Positions 29,676 through 40,085 of a stretch of 64,000 bases of DNA are shown one piece after another. Numbering within the stretch: the stretch's first letter is position 1; every line of letters starts with the position of its first letter. This DNA comes from Exobasidium rhododendri (Eukaryota > Basidiomycota > Exobasidiomycetes > Exobasidiales > Exobasidiaceae), in the NCBI GenBank assembly GCA_026210745.1, contig CP110631.1, forward strand, positions 434,001 through 498,000, given 5' to 3'. The position numbers and the translations under genes were made by a program. The notes beneath the pieces are model-generated. The model saw nothing but the letters and a program-made list of their open reading frames with translations. It was not told the DNA's origin and searched no databases.

Positions 29676-32600
29676 CTACGAGCTTCCTTCGCGAGCTTTG
29701 ACGATGTCCTCCCTCGTGATGCTCGACTTGTCGCACATGCTGTAGAAGAGCGCACCAGTACCGTTCTGAACGTCCTGAGCTTCGTCACCACCCTTTGACG
29801 ATTTCGATAGCTCCGCTCCCTTTTCGTACAGTGCCAAGGGAGTGTCGTACTCTGCTAAACGACCTTGATCAAAGACGGCTACCTTGTCGTATCCGATGAT
29901 CGTCTGTAGTCGATGAGCAATGGTGATGAGCGTCTTGTCGTTGCAAGAAGCTTGGATGGCTGATTGGATTTCACTATCACTGACCAAGTCGACACTTGAC
30001 GTCGCTTCATCGAGCACTAGTATCTTGGATCCTCGCAGTAGAGCTCGACCAACGCATAGCAGCTGTCTCTGTCCAGCACTGAAATTGGACGCTCCTTCTG
30101 TCAATAGCGCATCGAGACCTCCATCCAGTGACTTGATGTGATCTTTCAATCGAGCCTGATCAAGGCTGTGCCAGAGTTCTTCGTCGCTGTAGGTGCCTGT
30201 AGGGTCCATGTTGTCACGCAGAGTGCCTTCCCAGAGTTGCGGATCTTGAGGGATGATGGCAATATTCGACCGAAGATCCTTTAGGCCCAGCTTCTTGCTA
30301 TCGTAGTCATCTATCAGAATCGTGCCTTCTGCTGCTTCAATGATACGGAACAGCGCCAAGGTCAGACTAGACTTTCCCGCTCCTGTCCTGCCCACGACGG
30401 CCACCCTTTCTCCGTGATTGATGGTCAAGTCTATATTCTTGAGCACCATACCAAGATCCTTTCGATATCTCGTGGAGTAATTTGCAAACTCAATCTTGCC
30501 TTGCCTCGGCCAACCTGTAGGTGGTTTCTCATCCACTTCATAGGGCGCCTCTGGTTCCGTTTCGCTGTAGCTCAAGACTCTCTCCACAGACACAATGTTC
30601 TGCTCGACTTCAGATGCTGATCGTACGACCCAGTTGAGTGTTGAGGTGGTCGAGAGTGCTTGCGACATCATCAAGCCCAACAGACCCGCGTCCATCTTTC
30701 CCCCCTTTGTCACCAGTGTCACTGCCAACGTAGCCGCAGCCAGAATGACAATCGATCCAATAAATTCAATCCTGACGGCGAGCCATCGATTGCAGGTGGT
30801 GGCGGGAAAGTAACACATCTGATTACGGTCGACTCTTGCTTCACTTGTAGCCACGAACCTCGTCTGTTGATTGAACGCTCGGATAGTACTGAGTCCACCA
30901 AGACTTTCCTGGAACCAGGTAAAGATGGGAGACTTGCTTACCGCATCCAATCGCTTCAACTCTCTAGAAGTGGCCAGATAGTATCGCAAGACGGCTCGAT
31001 AGATGAACCAGAGTGGGACAATGGCCAGCAAGAACGGAGGAACCGAAACACTGACAACGACGAGGACCCCTACGACAACGACCATCGTACGGAAGAAGCC
31101 GTTCAAGACCCGGGGCAAAGTCTCGTCGATGACATTCACATCTCGAGAAAAGAGATTAAGTAGACGGCCAGTGGGGATGGTCTCGAACCACTGCAAGGGC
31201 GCCCGTAAGACACTCTTGAACATTCCGTCGTGGAATCGTTTGGCACTCCTGATCGCCAACCAGGTGTAGAGGATGAAGGGCGCGATGCAGATCGCGACAC
31301 TGGCTGCCACACCCAGGATACCATACAGCGTCAAGTAGAAGCGAGTGTCTGCAGGGCTGCCACCGGTCTGACTGTTGTGCGTCCCCCACTGTTTCAAGAC
31401 GATATCTCTAGAGACCTGCAGTACTTGCGTCATGACCTGAGCCAGTATATAGAGGGAGAAACCGATGGCGCTCGAGCTCGATGCGTACTGCTTGTAGACT
31501 TCACTGCTCACGCTGCCTTGCTCTGATTTCTCTTTCTGCTGTGTGGTGTCTCGCAGCTGACGCAAGGTCTCCTTCTTGATCTGCGCTTTGGACAGTGGCT
31601 TCGGTCTCCTCATCGAGGCTGTGCTCAACCTTCTGTGCAATTTAGTCTCTTGAAGTCCTTCTTCTCCTTGTACATGTGAGAATTCCTTGTCGTAATCGAC
31701 GACCTCGTGTGTCTCTTCATTCTCCTGCTTTTCGAGATAGGATAGCGGACTTTCTCCTTCTTCTGCCTCCTCTCCTCCTCCTCCTCCTCCTCCCGATCTT
31801 TCAGATTGCTTGCCTAGGCCATTGATCAGGTTGAAGATATCACCACGAGCTTCCATCACCTGTTGATACGTCCCTCTTTCCTTCAAGATGATACCCCTTC
31901 TAAGCGACACAATCTGATCCGCTTCGGGCAAAAAGGACACCATGTTCGTCGTGAGGATTCTGGTCTTGGTCTTTAGCATTCCTTCGGGTCCGATGACGTA
32001 CTTGAAGATGTGTGCACCTACATGAGCGTCCACTGCCGCCAAAGGATCGTCCAACAAGTAGACATCTGCTCTGGCATAGCAAGCACGAGCCAAGGCAACT
32101 CTTGCCTTTTGCCCACCTGACAGTGAAACACCCTTTTCCCCCACCTCTGTCATGTCTCCGTCTGGCAAGATGGCCAAATCGGGTTCGAGCGCACAAGCAT
32201 GAATGACTCGCTGATAAAAATCTTCTTCATATCGAAGACCAAAGAGGATGTTGTCACGAACAGAGACACCCATACACCACCCGCCTTGCGTGAAATAGGC
32301 CGTTCTACCTCGAACGATGCACTGTCCATCTGACCGATACATCTCCCCTAGTATCGCCGACAAGAGGGAGCTCTTTCCATCCCCTACCCTTCCCAGAACA
32401 GCAAGCAACTCTCCCTTTTTGACTGTCAGGTCGATGTCAGCCAGCGTCGGTACTGGTTGGCTTCGTGACCACTTGAATTCGGCGTTCTTGAGGGTCACCG
32501 TTGCTTCCGCGTCTGATTGTGCTTCATCTGCGGGACTGTCAGGTAGGAGTGGGTCTAGAGGATTTGCTGGCAAGATCATCTTTCGTGCATTTTCGTCCAA

Positions 32601-34664
32601 TTCACCGGCATCCAAAAAGTCCTCCAGTCGACGAGCAGAGACAAGAGCCTGGATTATTGCTGCTACGATACCCGCCAACATGGCCAGGGGAAAGGAGAGC
32701 AATTGGTAGAGACTCAGTGCTGGGAAGATGACGTCTGCCGTTAGAGGCTTGTCCGTCGTAGCACTGTAGACGATAAAGGTGCTCAAAGAGACAAAGAATG
32801 GAATCGCAGTCCAGAAGAAGTTGAAGAAAGCATTGACTATACCACTCTTTCGGAGTAGGGCCAATTCTTCATCGTTTCGTACTTTGAAGAGCTTGGCAGA
32901 AAAGGCGTCCTCCCAGGCAAACAATTTGATACTCTTGATGTTCGTCAGAATTTCATTCATCAGCCGAGTCCTCTTGTCCTTCACCTTCATTGTTCGTTCC
33001 GAAAGACTGCGCATGTATCGAGCAAGCGCTGTATTAATAGGCACCGAGACGACCATGATCCCGACTCCGATGAAGCTTGGCCATCCCAGTAAATTGTAGA
33101 GAGAGACAAAGGCCAAAGTCATCTGAAAGAGTGCAGACCAGGCAATGTGACCGTACGTACAGAGATCCTGCAGCCGAGTAGCATCAACGCTCATCAAATT
33201 GACGATGTCGCCGGTTGCCCTGCCGCTACGATCTTCGTTGGAAAGGCGTAGACTCTTTTTGAAGATAGCGGTGACCAAGCCAGCTCGCACTCTCATTCCT
33301 GTTGTGAAGCAGCGTTGAAAATAGGCATGTAGACAACTCGTTTGAACGATCGCAATCGCAAAAAGGAGGAAGGAGAAGAAGAATCCATGTAGTGGCGACT
33401 CGGGGTGTTTTGTCTCGTACGTCTGAACGAAACGCAACAAGTAACGCAGAACTTGGGGTTGAGCAAAGGCTAGCGCATCCTGGGCAGCTTTCAGGACAGC
33501 AGCAAAGAGAAAGGGACCTCCGTAAGCGTGAGCTAAGGTGACCCAAATCCGTGCCTTTCCGCCCTTCTTCCGAGTCTGATCATAGTACTTTTCGAATCGA
33601 TTCCCGAGATTCTCAGCATCTTCTCCTGGTGGCAATGTCCACATATCTTCCTGTGTGAGGAACTTCTTCGATCCAAGCGACATAAGTGGTTGCAGCCAAT
33701 GAAACGTGAGGCGGGAAAAGATGTTGGCAAAATTTTCGGGGCATTCCTTCTCCTCTACCTCGACGTGATCATGGAGGCGCTCTGTCTCGCTACCTTCGCT
33801 GATGTGGCTGAAACCACTAGTTCGAGGATTCTGACTTGCGGCCTCATGGGCGAATCCGTTTGCCCCGCTTGTCTTCTTCTCTACAGGTCTCGCCCCTCCT
33901 ACCTCCACTCCTACGCATTCCAACGAGAATATGATGACAACGAAGCTAAGTCGAGCTGCCTGCAAGACAAAGAAAGGGATGTTGTCTTTGATTGGCGGTG
34001 AAGGGTAGGTAGCCAGTGTTCGAATTCGAATGAAGCTGGCAAATATGTGGAAGAGCCAGAAGAAGAGCAGAACCGAAGACGACCGTCTAGTCCGGGTATG
34101 ATTCAAGTGCTGAAGGGGAAAGGCTAGGACATAGCTCGCCAGTGAGGCAACAGATCCATAAAAGGTTATCAGTCGGAAAGCATTCTTATTCGTGCTGATG
34201 TTCAGAGCAACTTCAAGAGCAGCACAAGACCCTACAAGCAGCAAAAGCCAGTTCTTGGTCACCAACAGTAGGTGACTGGCCTTCGTTAGCGATTTGACAG
34301 GCTGAGCTGCTAGTACTGAAAGGGTGAAGGAGGCAACAAAGGCGAGAAGAAAGGCTGGTGCTACGGCGAGAGCAGCGTCTTGAAAGCAGGGCGTGAAGTC
34401 AAGATCACGCATAGATGATACGGGACCCCATCCTTCCTTGTTATGGCATAAGGTATCCAGTAGTGAGATTGGTCGACTAGGTTTGAGGAAAGTCGGAATG
34501 CTGACGATGGAGACGTTGAGGGATGCGGTCGACTGAATCGAGGGAGAGAATTCTTCCGCACCGAATGCAAGTTGCTGAGAGGCGTCATAGATGGAGTAGT
34601 CTGATTGTAGTTGCGTATGAGCTCTACGTAGCAGACTCGACGCTCTTACCACCAGCGTCTCCAT
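29676..34664 (-). CDS. MRP/ABCC-type full-length ABC transporter (Ycf1-like)
   Basis: Single exon, 1662 residues, starting at the first ATG (METLVV); the frame opens four codons upstream at TTG. Layout: an N-terminal membrane domain TMD0 (about 90-260), linker, TMD1 beginning after FANIFSRLTFHWLQPL, NBD1, acidic linker, TMD2, NBD2. NBD1 has GRVGDGKSS (about 758), LSGGQKARVALARA (about 845) and LLDDPLAAVD (about 870). NBD2 has GRTGAGKSS (about 1423), FSAGQRQLLCVGRALL (about 1528) and LDEATSSVD (about 1550). TMD0 plus the Val-Gly-type Walker A of NBD1 place it with long MRPs such as Ycf1/MRP1, vacuolar pumps for glutathione conjugates and metals. Substrate and membrane are inferred. An intronless gene of this size stands out here. 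Confidence 0.93.
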   Translation of the reverse strand: METLVVRASSLLRRAHTQLQSDYSIYDASQQLAFGAEEFSPSIQSTASLNVSIVSIPTFLKPSRPISLLDTLCHNKEGWGPVSSMRDLDFTPCFQDAALAVAPAFLLAFVASFTLSVLAAQPVKSLTKASHLLLVTKNWLLLLVGSCAALEVALNISTNKNAFRLITFYGSVASLASYVLAFPLQHLNHTRTRRSSSVLLFFWLFHIFASFIRIRTLATYPSPPIKDNIPFFVLQAARLSFVVIIFSLECVGVEVGGARPVEKKTSGANGFAHEAASQNPRTSGFSHISEGSETERLHDHVEVEEKECPENFANIFSRLTFHWLQPLMSLGSKKFLTQEDMWTLPPGEDAENLGNRFEKYYDQTRKKGGKARIWVTLAHAYGGPFLFAAVLKAAQDALAFAQPQVLRYLLRFVQTYETKHPESPLHGFFFSFLLFAIAIVQTSCLHAYFQRCFTTGMRVRAGLVTAIFKKSLRLSNEDRSGRATGDIVNLMSVDATRLQDLCTYGHIAWSALFQMTLAFVSLYNLLGWPSFIGVGIMVVSVPINTALARYMRSLSERTMKVKDKRTRLMNEILTNIKSIKLFAWEDAFSAKLFKVRNDEELALLRKSGIVNAFFNFFWTAIPFFVSLSTFIVYSATTDKPLTADVIFPALSLYQLLSFPLAMLAGIVAAIIQALVSARRLEDFLDAGELDENARKMILPANPLDPLLPDSPADEAQSDAEATVTLKNAEFKWSRSQPVPTLADIDLTVKKGELLAVLGRVGDGKSSLLSAILGEMYRSDGQCIVRGRTAYFTQGGWCMGVSVRDNILFGLRYEEDFYQRVIHACALEPDLAILPDGDMTEVGEKGVSLSGGQKARVALARACYARADVYLLDDPLAAVDAHVGAHIFKYVIGPEGMLKTKTRILTTNMVSFLPEADQIVSLRRGIILKERGTYQQVMEARGDIFNLINGLGKQSERSGGGGGGGEEAEEGESPLSYLEKQENEETHEVVDYDKEFSHVQGEEGLQETKLHRRLSTASMRRPKPLSKAQIKKETLRQLRDTTQQKEKSEQGSVSSEVYKQYASSSSAIGFSLYILAQVMTQVLQVSRDIVLKQWGTHNSQTGGSPADTRFYLTLYGILGVAASVAICIAPFILYTWLAIRSAKRFHDGMFKSVLRAPLQWFETIPTGRLLNLFSRDVNVIDETLPRVLNGFFRTMVVVVGVLVVVSVSVPPFLLAIVPLWFIYRAVLRYYLATSRELKRLDAVSKSPIFTWFQESLGGLSTIRAFNQQTRFVATSEARVDRNQMCYFPATTCNRWLAVRIEFIGSIVILAAATLAVTLVTKGGKMDAGLLGLMMSQALSTTSTLNWVVRSASEVEQNIVSVERVLSYSETEPEAPYEVDEKPPTGWPRQGKIEFANYSTRYRKDLGMVLKNIDLTINHGERVAVVGRTGAGKSSLTLALFRIIEAAEGTILIDDYDSKKLGLKDLRSNIAIIPQDPQLWEGTLRDNMDPTGTYSDEELWHSLDQARLKDHIKSLDGGLDALLTEGASNFSAGQRQLLCVGRALLRGSKILVLDEATSSVDLVSDSEIQSAIQASCNDKTLITIAHRLQTIIGYDKVAVFDQGRLAEYDTPLALYEKGAELSKSSKGGDEAQDVQNGTGALFYSMCDKSSITREDIVKAREGSS

Positions 34665-35609
34665 CCTCAAGGTCAAGGAAGAATGGGAAAGGACGAGCAG
34701 GGTGTGCCAAGGTGATCGATCATTAATGCCCGATCTCCTATACGGAATTGCTTGCTAACGCAAGCTTTTTGTGCGCCCACGTGACGTTGTATCGAACAAT
34801 CATTCGGAGACTCTATCGCCGAGATCGGCGAACTGTCGGAGTCATTAGCGAATAGAAGCACGAAACGCTCGCGAGATTGGAGCATGGTCTTGATTTCAGA
34901 GGTCTTCGAAGTGTTGGAAAGAGTGTGTTCAGATTGGTACTTTTAACCTTCCCCCACTCCCTCTCCCTCTACCAACTAGCACGCCATATCCTGGCAATTT
35001 TTCACAGAACGTACACCCACCAAAGTTGAGGAAGTCTAATCTCGAAATTCGTCCTAGTCGCTCGCGCTAGCTTTCTACGTGTTCTCTCTTTGGCTGTTAT
35101 CAGCCTGGTCGTCCAGAGTGGATGGAGGAAGCAGAGAACGACCGACCCGTATTCACTGCTGTACCGACTCTGATGCGTGACATGAGACTCACATGGCTGC
35201 TCATCATGGTCTAGGACCCTGTCTGACACCACGCACGAATCGCATTCTAATGCATAGAATGCTTGGTCCGCTTTCATGACGTATCCTGGGATCTGGGGAA
35301 CATCCGCGGCTTTTAAGGAATCAGCTCTTCCGGGACGCGGTTTTCCCTTTTCTCTTTGGGGCTACTACTTGTTGTAAGAACTTGTGACAATATGTCCGGT
35401 GTGCGACCGAGACGCGCAAAGAAATACAAATGTTTGACCAACTTATCTCGACGATGGCAGGGCCTCCGCACAACTAAGAGAGATCCGCCACCCGCTGTCT
35501 TCACCCAACGAGCTCGTCCCATCCCGTCACTTCGCTGCAAGCTTGGCGTCGAAGGACAGTGTACCACCCTGCTGAGCAAAGAGAAAGCTACTTTTACTAT
35601 CGGACCACC
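34665..35609. other. Divergent promoter region, 0.95 kb
   Basis: Separates the ABC transporter and the Sec14-like gene, which start in opposite directions. Frames present are short and unsupported. A plus-strand ATG at about 35392 opens a frame in a different phase that overlaps the Sec14 start; it could be an upstream open reading frame in the leader. Confidence 0.4.
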
Positions 35610-37950
35610 ATGTCTTTTGTCAACCGTCAAACGTCTCGTGTCTCTACAGTGGAGTCCAGCACGGCTCCCTCAGAGAGGAAAGGCAGTCGGCCTTCTCTTC
35701 TTACGAAAGGTCTCGACAGCTTCAGAGGATCCCGGGGAGGGAACCATGCGAGGAATCAGTCTTCTTCAGCAGCAAGTAGTGGCGGCGGCGATGTGGTAGG
35801 AGAGAAGGCGGGACACCAAGATCTACGTGGATTCACTGGTGTCTTTCCCATTCCAGACAAGAGTAGTCAAGTCGGTCATTTCCCTGAACTGAAAGAGGAG
35901 GAAGAGGAAAAGTATGATCAAGTGCTGGAGTACTTTCGGAACCAGAAGGACTTCCCGGTCAGCTTGCATGCAGCTAATACTGAACGTAAACCGGCGTCGG
36001 AATGGGAGAAGCTTCGTCTGCTGAGCAGAGAGAGCATGCTCAGATACTTGAGGGCTTCCAAGTGGGACGTCACGATAGCTAAGAAGAGACTGACCGATAC
36101 GATTGCTTGGTCGAGAGAGTTTGGAATTGATGGCTTAGAAGCGGACGAGATGGCTAAAGAAGCACAGAGTGGAAAGGAGACTGTACTCGGCTACGACAAT
36201 CTATCTAGGCCCCTGCACTACATGCATCCTCATCGGAACAATACCAAAGTGAGTGTGACGTTGCAGGCGGAGAATCTGCTGCACTGCCCTATCCAGTTGC
36301 TCAGCTAAAAAAATTGTCATTTCAGGAAACGCCGAGGCAGATGCAGTACGCCGTCTGGATCCTGGAGAGGTGCATTGATTTGATGCCGCCAGGCACAGAG
36401 CAGCTAGCCTTGCTCATCAATTTCGATCACAAAAGCCGGAACCCTACAAGTATCGCCAATGCAAAGCTGATGTTGTACATCCTGCAGAATCACTACGTCG
36501 AAAGACTAGGGATTGCACTCTGCATTAATGGTGAGTATCAGCCACCTGCTCGGATCTTTGCCTTCAGTAATGCTGACTTGGACATCTTTCTTCTGCAGTA
36601 CCTTGGGTTTTCAAGCTCTTCTGGAATGCGATCCAGCCCTTCATCGATCCCGTCACCAAGAGCAAGTGCAAGTTCGACTCGGCCATCAAGACGGAAGTAC
36701 CGCTCAATCAATTAAGCTCGGAATTTGGTGGAGAGTTGGACGCAACGTACAATCATGAATTGTACTGGCCAGATCTTGTCGAGCTGAGTGCTGAAAGGAG
36801 GAGAGAGATGATCCGAAGATTCCGAGACGATTGCAACTCAGAGATTGGAGCATCAGAGTGGGTCATCAGGGGTGGTGACGATCCGACTTCACCTTTCAAC
36901 GCTAAAGATCGAGCGACGCCAAGTGAGTTGACAACCACCTCGAAGTCATCGGAAGCGGTTCCGCCTAGCAAGGCTCCGCTTAGCGAGCTCCAAGAGACCA
37001 AGAGTGGAAGAGGGACCGCCATTGATGCTAGCAACAATCGGATGGACAACTCTGCCTCAAACTTCACAACGATACACTCTGACGAGCCATCTACACCACT
37101 CGAAAGATACAAGACTCCATCCGAGATATTCAATTCAAGACCCTTGGACCGAACATTCAGTACCGCCAGCGTGAGTGCGGTCTCAGCAGCAGGAAGGTCA
37201 TCGGGCAGTGGATTCCGATCGAACGAAGAAAGAAGTGCGTCTGCTTCTGGAAAGGAACATGCCCGCAGCGGGTCAGTGACAAAGAGTTTCAAGGACCTCA
37301 ACCATAAAATTCACGATTCCCTCATTCGACCTTTTCAAAATTCCCCCAATTCAAGTCCACGCAGCTCTAGAGACCTTTCAAAGAGGACTGGGCATGAGGA
37401 CGCCAAGACAAAGAGATCGTCGTCATCGGCGCTTCCCAATGCAAAGCACGAAAAGGAGAAAGCGGCTGACATTGATCGAAAGGAGAACGTCGAGAATGGG
37501 CAAGATCGTAGTGCCAGTGCCACCGCTTCGACAACAGAGGCAGCTAAAGTGGCAGCTACAGGAGGCCTGGGAGGTGTAGTAGGAGCATTGGCGACTTCTG
37601 GCTCAGTGGAGAAGATACCTTCGAATAATACAAAAGCGGCGATGACGACGACTACCACCACGACATGCATCATCAACATGTTCTTCTTTGCCGCAGCCAA
37701 GGAAGCGGCGGGCGTCGGCTCGATAAAGATAACCCTCCCTAGCTCGTCATTCCCTCTATCTGAATTAGGTGACCATCTTGTTCAAAACGTTTCGCAAAAC
37801 AGTAAAGGTGATTCGACGGCACTTAAAAAGGTCTTGAAACAGTCAAAGTGGAGCGTCAATGAAGACATGGTCGACGAAGAGGACATTCACAGCATCTTTC
37901 TCAAGGGCGGAGAAGACGTGGCCATCATTCCTCCTGTTTCTGGTGGCTAA
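35610..37950 (+). CDS. Sec14-like (CRAL-TRIO) protein fused in frame to a MoaD/MOCS2A domain
   Basis: Three exons, 35610-36248, 36326-36530 and 36599-37950 (introns 77 and 68 nt), 731 residues. I start at the ATG in accaccATGTC; the frame extends upstream to a GTG. Residues about 100-165 are the CRAL-TRIO N domain (SMLRYLRASKWDVTIAKKRL), and about 190-400 the Sec14 lipid-binding lobe (LLINFDHKSRNP, LQNHYVERLGIALCIN, PWVFKLFWNAIQPFIDPVTKSK, LSSEFGGELD). Such proteins move phosphatidylinositol or other lipids between membranes. A Ser/Thr-rich disordered region follows (about 400-625). Residues 630-731 then form a complete MoaD-like domain ending in the carboxyl-terminal Gly-Gly. No stop separates the two parts. 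Whether one polypeptide or two are made is open; see the nested entry. Confidence 0.85.
37642..37950 (+). CDS. MOCS2A: Molybdopterin synthase small subunit (MoaD/MOCS2A-like), nested in the Sec14 frame
   Basis: From the internal ATG at 37642 the same frame codes 102 residues that alone look like a full MoaD/MOCS2A protein. It has a first beta strand INMFFFAAAKEAAG, the KITLPSSSFPLSELGDHL segment, WSVNEDMVDE (compare the AVNQxxV strand of MoaD) and the diagnostic LKGGEDVAIIPPVSGG at the very C-terminus. The terminal Gly-Gly is thiocarboxylated and donates sulfur in molybdopterin synthesis. About 100 residues is the usual length. The upstream stretch MTTTTTTT is low complexity. This could be an independent gene with its promoter inside the Sec14 coding region, an internal start on the same mRNA, or the tail of a true fusion. 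Confidence 0.8.
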   Translation: MTTTTTTTCIINMFFFAAAKEAAGVGSIKITLPSSSFPLSELGDHLVQNVSQNSKGDSTALKKVLKQSKWSVNEDMVDEEDIHSIFLKGGEDVAIIPPVSGG

Positions 37951-38176: not shown

Positions 38177-39769
38177 TCAATCCGTGAGAGTAGTGGGTAT
38201 AGGTGTGAAACGAGGTAGAGCGCCAGTCCAGTACGCTACTCGCTTTCCAGTGGAATCAATTCCGTAGTCGTAGCCTAGATGTGGATACTTTTGCACCAAC
38301 TCAAAGACATCTTCATCTTCAAACGCCGACAGATCTGGTTCACCTTGACAGGCAGAGGCGTTGGAGTGAAAGTCGAGGATGCTCTCATTGCGATCCCATC
38401 CGAGCGATCGCGGTGCCACAATGCGTATATCTACTGGAGAGAAAGAGGAGTGCGAGTAGCGATGCGCTCCGTCACTGTAATGAACGTTGCTGTTCGACAC
38501 ATCTGCCCTTGCCTCTTGTGAATAACGAAGGAGGAGATTCTTGAATTGTTCGAGCAATTGCCAGTACGCCAGCCTACTCCCACAACGAGACTCTTCCTGC
38601 CTCTCCGCCCACTCTAGCCCTTCTTCACTCGTTAAAGGCACGTCGGCCGGAAAGTCCAGGGTGGCCAATTGACCGAGCTGACCAGTGGAGAATTGATCGA
38701 AAGGTGCACCAAATCCCCCCGTCGAAGGCAGTACTTCAGCAGCAGCAGCAACAACAGCAGCATCACTACCCGCGACACTGGCCCCGGCATTTCGCCTTTC
38801 TTGATCATCTTGCCATGGCGTTAAATGTTCGGGCATGTCTAGATCTCCCAGGTCCATCATTTCCAGACAAATGGTCCGCAGGGACGTATACTGTTCTACG
38901 CACTCTCGAAGAAGCAGAAGGAGAGGCTGAACAGAAGTCGAAATACTTCTATCAAACATTTCTTGGGCACTACTGCCATTACTACTCGAAGTAGTCCCCA
39001 AATTCATAGAGGGTAATTGTATGGCGTAGGAGGAGATTCGGGACAAGCGAAGACATTGCAAAGACTTGTACAGTGTTGAACCGAATCGCTCACTCAAGGT
39101 TGGCGGCACCCATTGAATCAAGTGTAGGTGAGTAAGATTCGGTGCCTCTAAAGAACCTACACCAAGATTCGGAAAGCTGAAGCTCAGGCTACTTATCGTG
39201 ACCCGCTTCAGTGATGGTAAGACTTCTTGTGGAGTGTTGGCATGTCTAATAAACTCTTGCAAAGCTTCACCGCCTGGTCTAGTCGCTATGAAGGTTGTCT
39301 CGAGACGGGAACAAAGGTGGAATATGGTCCGCAAAGATTCTACCCAGGCAAGCTTGTCGGCCATTCGATCGGAAGCGCCATGGAGTAGACCGTCGTTTGG
39401 GAGATGAAGATGACGTATAAGCTGGCCAAGCGACTTCCTGCGGCGTAGCGTAGATGCCAAGAGATTTGTAGAGATGATGCGATGCAGATTGATGGCAAAG
39501 TAAAGGAGGGGAGTCGCTAGCCGGTTGCCCTTCTTGCAAGTGAGCGCAAACGCACAAAGAGCGGGAGAAGCAGGAGGATGCGGCCAGGGAGGTCGACTGG
39601 CTGAAGTCCAGGAATTGGTTAGAGCAGTGTACGAACTTGACGAAGGGTGTCGAGGTGGGTAACTCGAAGTCAAGGGAGGTGGAAGCAAGAATCTTAAGAT
39701 CAGCGCTATTAGTTCATCCGGCAGCTGTAGGAGTCGAGATGGGGACGAAGCTTCCCGCCCCTCCATCAT
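38177..39769 (-). CDS. F-box-like protein
   Basis: Uninterrupted frame; from the tandem ATG codons at 39769 (MMEGREASS) the product is about 530 residues. An alternative ATG at 39994 would add 75 mostly Pro/Leu-rich residues that look like leader sequence, so I prefer the shorter form. Near the start lies SRLLQLPDELIALILRFLLPP, an F-box-like motif that would bind Skp1 in an SCF ubiquitin ligase. It is followed by CAFALTCKKGNRLATPLLY and weak leucine-rich segments (SLGQLIRHLHL, LKRVTISSLSFSFPNLG, LTHLHLIQW) of the sort seen in fungal F-box/LRR proteins. Substrate unknown. It lies downstream of secreted-protein gene A on the same strand. Confidence 0.65.
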   Translation of the reverse strand: MMEGREASSPSRLLQLPDELIALILRFLLPPPLTSSYPPRHPSSSSYTALTNSWTSASRPPWPHPPASPALCAFALTCKKGNRLATPLLYFAINLHRIISTNLLASTLRRRKSLGQLIRHLHLPNDGLLHGASDRMADKLAWVESLRTIFHLCSRLETTFIATRPGGEALQEFIRHANTPQEVLPSLKRVTISSLSFSFPNLGVGSLEAPNLTHLHLIQWVPPTLSERFGSTLYKSLQCLRLSRISSYAIQLPSMNLGTTSSSNGSSAQEMFDRSISTSVQPLLLLLRECVEQYTSLRTICLEMMDLGDLDMPEHLTPWQDDQERRNAGASVAGSDAAVVAAAAEVLPSTGGFGAPFDQFSTGQLGQLATLDFPADVPLTSEEGLEWAERQEESRCGSRLAYWQLLEQFKNLLLRYSQEARADVSNSNVHYSDGAHRYSHSSFSPVDIRIVAPRSLGWDRNESILDFHSNASACQGEPDLSAFEDEDVFELVQKYPHLGYDYGIDSTGKRVAYWTGALPRFTPIPTTLTD

Positions 39770-40085
39770 TGCATCGCTCGAGGAAGCGAAAGGACGACCC
39801 TCTTGCCCACGTCTCTGGAGGAGGGGAGACGGTTCGAAAGGCAAGAGAGGCAGAGAAGGGGGGAAGAGAAGTGGGCGGAAAATGTTTGGAGTCGCGAGAC
39901 CCTCTCTTTGAAAGGCAGGGGAGGTCTGGACAACTCTAAATGGTGAAAACACGGCTTTAGCAATTTTTTTAATCACCGCGCAGAATGACCTCATGACATT
40001 GGTTCTCACTACAACTGCTACGTCGCAATGTGCAATGCAGTGGCCGTCAAAGCTCTCCCTTTCGTACAGATATAGCTCCACCGCA

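What the first reader, a model, noticed from the sequence alone, without database searches (positions are those of the whole stretch)
35610..37950. Sec14-like lipid-transfer gene runs in frame into a complete MoaD/MOCS2A domain
Seen: one uninterrupted frame joins a CRAL-TRIO protein, a ~225-residue disordered stretch and a full MoaD-like domain whose LKGGEDVAIIPPVSGG ends exactly at the stop codon, so its C-terminal Gly-Gly stays chemically competent. Known: MoaD/MOCS2A must have a free C-terminal Gly-Gly and is normally a stand-alone ~90-residue protein; in animals it shares a bicistronic mRNA with MOCS2B. Inference: this could be a real bifunctional protein, an internally started small protein from the ATG at 37642, or two overlapping genes with a promoter inside the Sec14 coding region. 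I know of no described Sec14-MoaD fusion.
Basis: partly seen in the sequence, partly recalled or inferred. Interest (0 to 1): 0.85.

Follow-up and report, generated by a model that had tools for sequence, protein, structure and literature searches.

The report
Lipid-transfer protein carrying a cofactor-sulfur domain
In a class of smut-related fungi, one gene encodes a lipid-transfer protein that ends in the small sulfur-carrier protein used to make the molybdenum cofactor; the join looks real and is shared by many species, but how the two halves work together is untested.

Summary
The window is Exobasidium rhododendri. The gene at 35610-37950 has three exons; its frame is open only after two introns are removed. 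The 731-residue product equals NCBI CBS101457_003160: a Pdr16/Sfh3-type CRAL-TRIO protein, a low-confidence linker of about 256 residues, and a complete MoaD/MOCS2A domain ending in Gly-Gly. It is the only MoaD hit in this genome, which also holds MoaE, MoaC, an Uba4-like E1 and nitrate reductase.

The fusion is not a one-genome oddity: 30 of 78 returned proteins have it. Those with a fungal name are Exobasidiomycetes; 26 un-fused Ustilaginomycotina-type rows of the tree lie outside the fused group. Only 4 of 30 have a Met within 20 residues before the MoaD fold and 5 of 30 have none within 60, which speaks against a separately started MoaD as the general rule; but 21 of 30 have one within 40, so it is not excluded for many.

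Most likely this is one bifunctional polypeptide whose tail serves as the small subunit of molybdopterin synthase. Whether it works tethered or cut free is unknown. I found no paper on it.

The parts
35610..36248 (+). Exon 1 of the fusion gene (start ATG, N-terminal low-confidence region, CRAL_TRIO_N, first part of CRAL_TRIO)
   Evidence: product identical to NCBI CBS101457_003160
36249..36325 (+). Intron 1, 77 nt, GTGAGT...CAG
   Evidence: raw frame stops at 36308
36326..36530 (+). Exon 2 (middle of CRAL_TRIO; codes for Glu272, the equivalent of Pdr16 E235, at about 36500-36502)
36531..36598 (+). Intron 2, 68 nt, GTGAGT...CAG
36599..37950 (+). Exon 3: end of CRAL_TRIO (Lys304, the equivalent of Pdr16 K267, at about 36664-36666), linker, MoaD domain, stop codon 37948-37950
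36886..37653 (+). Coding region of the low-confidence linker, residues about 378-633; holds a motif shared by relatives (FKTP...PLDRxFS)
37642..37644 (+).
37669..37947 (+). MoaD/MOCS2A domain, residues 639-731, ending PPVSGG

Best explanation
One spliced mRNA is translated into a single 731-residue protein. Its N-terminal half is a Pdr16/Sfh3-type phosphatidylinositol-transfer protein. Its last ~93 residues are the cell's only small subunit of molybdopterin (MPT) synthase. The long flexible linker lets the MoaD tail reach its partners. The Uba4-type E1 adenylates and thiocarboxylates the free C-terminal Gly-Gly, the tail docks into the separate MoaE (MOCS2B) subunit, and cPMP is converted to MPT for nitrate reductase. 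I think it works mostly while still attached, because only the C-terminus has to be free. Shown by sequence: gene structure, shared fusion, sole detectable MoaD copy, presence of the partner genes. Inferred: a single translation product, activity while tethered, and every biochemical step.
For: Fusion in 30 of 78 returned proteins (two of the three searches used the fused protein as query, which favours finding it). An HMM built from these 30 and the two stand-alone MoaDs hits none of the other 46 at E up to 10. All 30 end in VSGG, 29 in IPPVSGG (the 30 were picked by 'SGG' at the end, and one search shows no other MoaD among the rest). Sec14-domain tree: all 23 fused rows lie in one group of 25. 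MoaD and Sec14 distances correlate, r = 0.69, 0 of 2000 permutations as high, 23 of the 30 fused proteins. Met within 20 residues before the MoaD fold in 4 of 30, within 60 in 25 of 30. Single MoaD place in the genome, single MoaE, MoaC, nitrate reductase with Mo-pterin, dimerisation, cytochrome b5 and FAD domains, an Uba4-like ThiF gene followed by a weak rhodanese-like piece. MoaD part of the model at pLDDT about 95, with best matches to MoaD of MPT synthases. PI-binding residues kept: Glu272 in 23 of 23 fused rows that cover it (7 do not), Lys304 in 30 of 30. The deposited human MOCS2A chain 5mpo_A is 106 residues long and matches from residue 24 (83 residues are in the structure), so extra residues before the domain were tolerated in that construct.
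Against: No transcript or protein data. Met is over-represented 21-40 residues before the MoaD fold (19 Mets in that bin against 2-9 in the nine other bins), and 21 of 30 have a Met within 40 residues, so an internally started MoaD with a short extension is possible in many species. One Tilletia-like ORF, P0059, ends just where MoaD should follow, which may be an intron or a real separation. On the tree the fused label needs 3 changes, not 1, because of P0059 and the partial P0026, and the group's support is modest (SH-aLRT 83). The known fused MPT synthase MoaX works only after cleavage (abstract of PMC4326299), though there the fusion blocks the MoaD C-terminus. Genome searches were six-frame and exon by exon, so a second MoaD split by introns could be missed.
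Confidence: 0.62

Rival explanations
1. The fusion is translated whole, then cut in the linker, releasing a free MoaD and a Pdr16-like protein.
For: Precedent: the fused bacterial MPT synthase MoaX must be cleaved to work (abstract of PMC4326299). The linker is long and low in confidence, hence easy to cut.
Against: No conserved cut site next to MoaD seen by eye: the residues just before the fold differ among the 30. Here the Gly-Gly is already C-terminal, so cleavage is not needed for the chemistry.
Confidence: 0.18
2. MoaD is made as a separate small protein, from an inner promoter or an inner start codon; the fused reading is a by-product or minor form.
For: ATG at 37642 in this species; 21 of 30 have a Met within 40 residues before the fold and Met is over-represented 21-40 residues upstream. 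In humans MOCS2A and MOCS2B share one bicistronic mRNA (passages of PMC9370521).
Against: 5 of 30 have no Met within 60 residues, one none within 240. All 30 predicted proteins run through 209 to 430 residues between the Sec14 end and MoaD, which a mere overlap would not need. In the Jaminaea/Sympodiomycopsis group the frequent Met sits inside a motif alike on both sides; P0027 has Thr there and no Met within 60, P0020 has Ile there with a Met two residues on, P0025 has Phe there. In this mRNA 24 ATGs (9 in frame, counting the true start) precede 37642, so scanning from the normal 5' end should not reach it.
Confidence: 0.15
3. The join is an assembly or annotation artefact (lost stop or missed splice).
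For: The sequences are predicted proteins or mechanical ORFs; this assembly was not checked against reads.
Against: The same architecture in nine named fungal species, this one included, and in many unnamed contigs; domain distances agree.
Confidence: 0.02

Closest known systems
Pdr16/Sfh3 (Sec14-family phosphatidylinositol-transfer protein of yeast)
   Same: Best solved match by sequence (4j7p, 5e-65, residues 93-375) and by fold; PI-binding pair E235/K267 (PMC4331669, abstract and passages) kept as Glu272/Lys304.
   Different: Yeast Pdr16 is about 350 residues (4m8z_A, 351) with no MoaD; here a linker of about 256 residues and MoaD follow.
MoaD / MOCS2A, small subunit of MPT synthase
   Same: Full-length match to TIGR01682 moaD (positions 1-80 of 80, 1.8e-10), weak match to human MOCS2A 5mpo by sequence (0.0046) and clear ones to MoaD folds; ends in Gly-Gly.
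   Different: Normally a free protein, as in the Rhodotorula paludigena relative P0009 (95 aa); here it is the tail of a 731-residue protein. It scores below the TIGR01682 curated cut-off (41.5 against 66.15), but higher than P0009 does (24.3).
MoaX of Mycobacterium tuberculosis, a fused MoaD-MoaE
   Same: A MoaD domain in a natural fusion.
   Different: There MoaD is fused to its own partner MoaE and must be cut after Gly82 (abstract of PMC4326299). Here MoaD is C-terminal and joined to an unrelated protein.
Prokaryotic ThiS/MoaD fusions listed by Iyer et al. 2006
   Same: Ubiquitin-like sulfur carriers joined to other proteins: ThiS-ThiG, MoaD-MoaE, ThiS at the C-terminus of sulfite reductase, possibly MoaD with aldehyde ferredoxin oxidoreductase (passages of PMC1779556).
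   Different: Those listed in the passages are prokaryotic and joined to sulfur or redox enzymes; 'Sec14' and 'CRAL' occur 0 times in that paper's main text.

Membership tests
Pdr16/Sfh3-type Sec14 protein | CRAL_TRIO_N plus CRAL_TRIO domains, closest solved relative Pdr16 | tested here: met
Pdr16/Sfh3-type Sec14 protein | PI-binding Glu and Lys (yeast E235, K267) | tested here: met
   Glu272 and Lys304 by alignment; conservation counts; role of the pair from PMC4331669
Pdr16/Sfh3-type Sec14 protein | Transfers or binds PI; place in the cell | not testable with these tools
   needs lipid-binding assay and microscopy
MoaD/MOCS2A | Ubiquitin-like beta-grasp fold nearest to MoaD of MPT synthases | tested here: met
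   Pfam ThiS above cut-off; TIGR01682 best NCBIfam match but below its cut-off
MoaD/MOCS2A | Free C-terminal Gly-Gly | tested here: met
   stop codon follows directly; all 30 fused end in VSGG
MoaD/MOCS2A | Stand-alone small protein | tested here: not met
   encoded as the tail of a longer protein here; sole detected copy in this genome. So it is a MoaD domain, not a typical MoaD protein.
MoaD/MOCS2A | Partner genes present (MoaE, E1 with rhodanese, MoaC, Mo enzyme) | tested here: met
   MoaE, MoaC, nitrate reductase; the E1 has ThiF pieces above cut-off and a rhodanese-like piece below cut-off (17.1 against 22.2 bits), its exons read separately and not spliced
MoaD/MOCS2A | Thiocarboxylation and MPT synthase activity | not testable with these tools
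   needs biochemistry
Urm1 (related sulfur carrier) | Urm1 family match instead of MoaD | tested here: not met
   the genome's one Urm1 hit lies elsewhere, C2:621139-621255; this domain matches MoaD

The most novel reading that the evidence does not exclude
In Exobasidiomycetes the molybdenum-cofactor pathway is physically coupled to lipid transfer: MPT synthase is held at a membrane or lipid droplet through the Pdr16-like half, so that lipid binding places or regulates cofactor synthesis, or loading of the sulfur carrier regulates lipid transfer.
Probability: 0.25. Interest if true: 0.82.

Novelty: new variant of a known kind. Interest (0 to 1): 0.62.

Why it matters
Both domains are well known, but their union, kept across five orders of fungi, appears undescribed in the library searched. 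It suggests that a sulfur carrier can live as the tail of a large unrelated protein, which tests how much freedom MPT synthase needs. It also points to a link between lipid handling and molybdenum-cofactor synthesis that can be tested directly. Automatic annotation already names two of these lipid-transfer proteins 'molybdopterin converting factor small subunit' (P0012, P0037), so one function of each protein is easily overlooked.

Tried and rejected
Second MoaD gene in the genome: not found by the Pfam ThiS model or by the stand-alone relative P0009.

Internal ATG at 37642 as the general rule: rejected, since only 4 of 30 have a Met within 20 residues before the fold.

Conserved cut site before MoaD: looked for by eye, none seen. 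A hand-made motif for the linker matched 11 of 30 linkers against a shuffled mean of 0.05, but I wrote it after seeing the sequences and it missed several cases I had had in mind, so I give it no weight.

Stand-alone MoaD in relatives: only two found by the 102-residue query, among 3 candidates.

Un-fused rows inside the fused group: P0026 is labelled partial and ends soon after the Sec14 domain; P0059 matches Tilletia indica P0057 up to PAPALQ and then stops. I read it as an ORF cut by an intron, but could not see its DNA.

The MoaD-only model (mean pLDDT 73.8, 3 sequences) is weaker than the MoaD part of the full model; in both, MoaD of mycobacterial and human MPT synthases are the best MoaD-side matches. 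The CRAL-TRIO part of the full model has low-confidence stretches, so its fold match (TM to target about 0.56, rmsd about 12) leans on sequence.

Papers: MOCS2A and Sec14 (0 papers), molybdopterin synthase and CRAL-TRIO, Exobasidiomycetes and molybdenum cofactor, Sec14, molybdopterin and fusion protein; one search gave 2 papers and one search gave 3, none on this by title and start of abstract. Searches were for background.

Full report
What is there. The window lies in Exobasidium rhododendri: the spliced product of the gene is identical to NCBI CBS101457_003160 over 731 residues. Exons are 35610-36248, 36326-36530 and 36599-37950, with two short introns of 77 and 68 nt. The raw frame is therefore interrupted (the first-exon ORF stops at 36308), contrary to a literal reading of 'uninterrupted', but the last exon joins the Sec14 end, the linker and MoaD in one frame. 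Pfam gives CRAL_TRIO_N, CRAL_TRIO and ThiS/MoaD. The model has a confident MoaD fold (pLDDT about 95 over residues 641-720) and a low-confidence linker at 378-633; parts of the CRAL-TRIO domain are low too.

What the halves are. The Sec14 half is nearest to yeast Pdr16/Sfh3 (5e-65) and keeps the residue pair that Pdr16 needs to bind phosphatidylinositol (E235/K267 in PMC4331669, abstract and passages; Glu272/Lys304 here). The tail is MoaD/MOCS2A: the best folds are mycobacterial and human MPT synthase small subunits, and the best NCBIfam model is TIGR01682 moaD over its full length, though below its curated cut-off. The genome has a separate Urm1 hit.

It is the only MoaD that I can find in this genome. 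One place in the 17.6-Mb assembly matches the ThiS model, and the stand-alone Rhodotorula relative finds the same single place. MoaE, MoaC, a nitrate reductase and an Uba4-like gene (ThiF pieces above cut-off, a rhodanese-like piece below it) are present, so the pathway should need a MoaD. The searches read six frames without splicing, so a heavily split second copy could be missed.

The fusion is shared. A search limited to the MoaD part among long proteins gave 8 proteins of 127 candidates at E up to 10. A full-length search gave 76 of 7993 scored candidates at E up to 1e-10. A search with MoaD alone gave 2 stand-alone proteins of 3 candidates. Of the 78 distinct proteins, 30 are longer than 300 residues and end in a MoaD domain. 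An HMM built from these 30 and the two stand-alone ones hits none of the other 46. Two of the three queries were the fused protein, so 30 of 78 is no estimate of frequency. Named carriers are E. rhododendri, Tilletiopsis washingtonensis, Jaminaea rosea, J. pallidilutea, Parajaminaea phylloscopi, Sympodiomycopsis kandeliae, Tilletiaria anomala, Tilletia horrida (two proteins) and T. indica, and one protein labelled Adiantum nelumboides, a fern, probably a fungal contaminant. By the look-ups these fall in Exobasidiales, Entylomatales, Microstromatales, Georgefischeriales and Tilletiales, all class Exobasidiomycetes. J. pallidilutea and T. horrida go by their genus, and Parajaminaea was not looked up.

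One origin is likely. On a quick tree of the Sec14 part (56 of 63 aligned rows; 7 too short were dropped), all 23 fused rows lie in one group of 25 rows with SH-aLRT 83, a modest value. The two other rows are the partial Ceraceosorus record P0026 and the Tilletia-like ORF P0059; because of them the label needs 3 changes, not 1. The other 26 un-fused Ustilaginomycotina-type rows, named Ustilago, Sporisorium, Pseudozyma, Testicularia, Violaceomyces and others or unnamed, lie outside. Violaceomyces, a Ustilaginomycete without MoaD, is placed next to the fused group (SH-aLRT 97), so a loss there or a misplaced row is possible; the class of the other un-fused genera is recalled. MoaD and Sec14 distances correlate across 23 of the 30 fused proteins (r = 0.69, 0 of 2000 permutations). 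That fits joint descent, though shared phylogeny alone would give it whether or not the proteins are translated as one.

Is MoaD ever started on its own? A Met within 20, 40 and 60 residues before the fold occurs in 4, 21 and 25 of 30. So 5 of 30 have none within 60 and one (P0003) none within 240. That speaks against a separate AUG start as a general rule, barring unseen introns or wrong gene models. Against my reading, Met is clearly over-represented 21-40 residues upstream (19 against 2-9 in the other nine 20-residue bins). In the Jaminaea/Sympodiomycopsis group this Met sits in a peptide motif alike on both sides. P0027 has Thr in its place and no Met within 60 residues, P0025 has Phe, and P0020 has Ile with a Met two residues on. 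That looks like a protein motif rather than a start, but I cannot exclude dual use. In E. rhododendri 24 ATGs, counting the true start, precede 37642 in the spliced mRNA, so an inner promoter would be the likely way to use that codon.

How it probably works. The sulfur of MPT comes from a thiocarboxylate at the C-terminus of MOCS2A, made by MOCS3 (passages of PMC9370521); that this end reaches into MoaE is recalled. The end is free here, and 209-430 residues between the Sec14 end and MoaD would let it reach. The deposited human MOCS2A chain carries extra residues before the domain (5mpo_A matches from residue 24 of 106; 83 residues are in the structure), so some addition at that end was tolerated there. 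I therefore favour an uncut, tethered MPT synthase subunit, with cleavage as the main rival: MoaX is the precedent for cleavage, but there cleavage frees the Gly-Gly (PMC4326299 abstract). What the Sec14 half adds is unknown; placement at a membrane is the boldest open idea.

Known or new. MoaD and ThiS fusions are known in prokaryotes with sulfur and redox partners (PMC1779556 passages). My literature searches found no Sec14-MoaD fusion, within an open-access library that lacks most subscription papers. One source already names two of these proteins as the molybdopterin subunit, so the domain was seen by automatic annotation but, as far as I can find, not discussed. I rate it a new variant of a known kind.

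Noticed in passing
P0016: A protein with this fungal fusion is filed under the fern Adiantum nelumboides (longest contig listed 1.1 Mb) and groups with unnamed fused sequences in the tree; probably a fungal contaminant contig in a plant assembly.
   Followed up: partly
P0059, end of protein: A Tilletia-like ORF matches T. indica P0057 up to PAPALQ and then stops, where MoaD would follow; perhaps an intron between linker and MoaD in Tilletia, which would allow a Sec14-only form by intron retention.
   Followed up: partly
G000:C3:3217250-3218159: A second place in the genome matches the Sec14 part in three pieces (38-44% identical): a second Pdr16-like gene, with no MoaD hit there.
   Followed up: no
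Un-fused relatives, e.g. P0035, P0040, P0051: They end in their own shared tail with a Gly/Ala-rich hydrophobic stretch (GDASLFAAVVGGIS...) instead of MoaD; function unknown.
   Followed up: no
window 29676-34676 (-) and 38177-40081 (-): Neighbours on the other strand: a 1666-residue ORF with the look of an MRP-type ABC transporter upstream and a 634-residue ORF that looks F-box-like downstream (names by eye, not searched).
   Followed up: no
G000:C3:915174-915689: A CRAL_TRIO match with one TGA inside; an intron or a broken copy, not examined.
   Followed up: no
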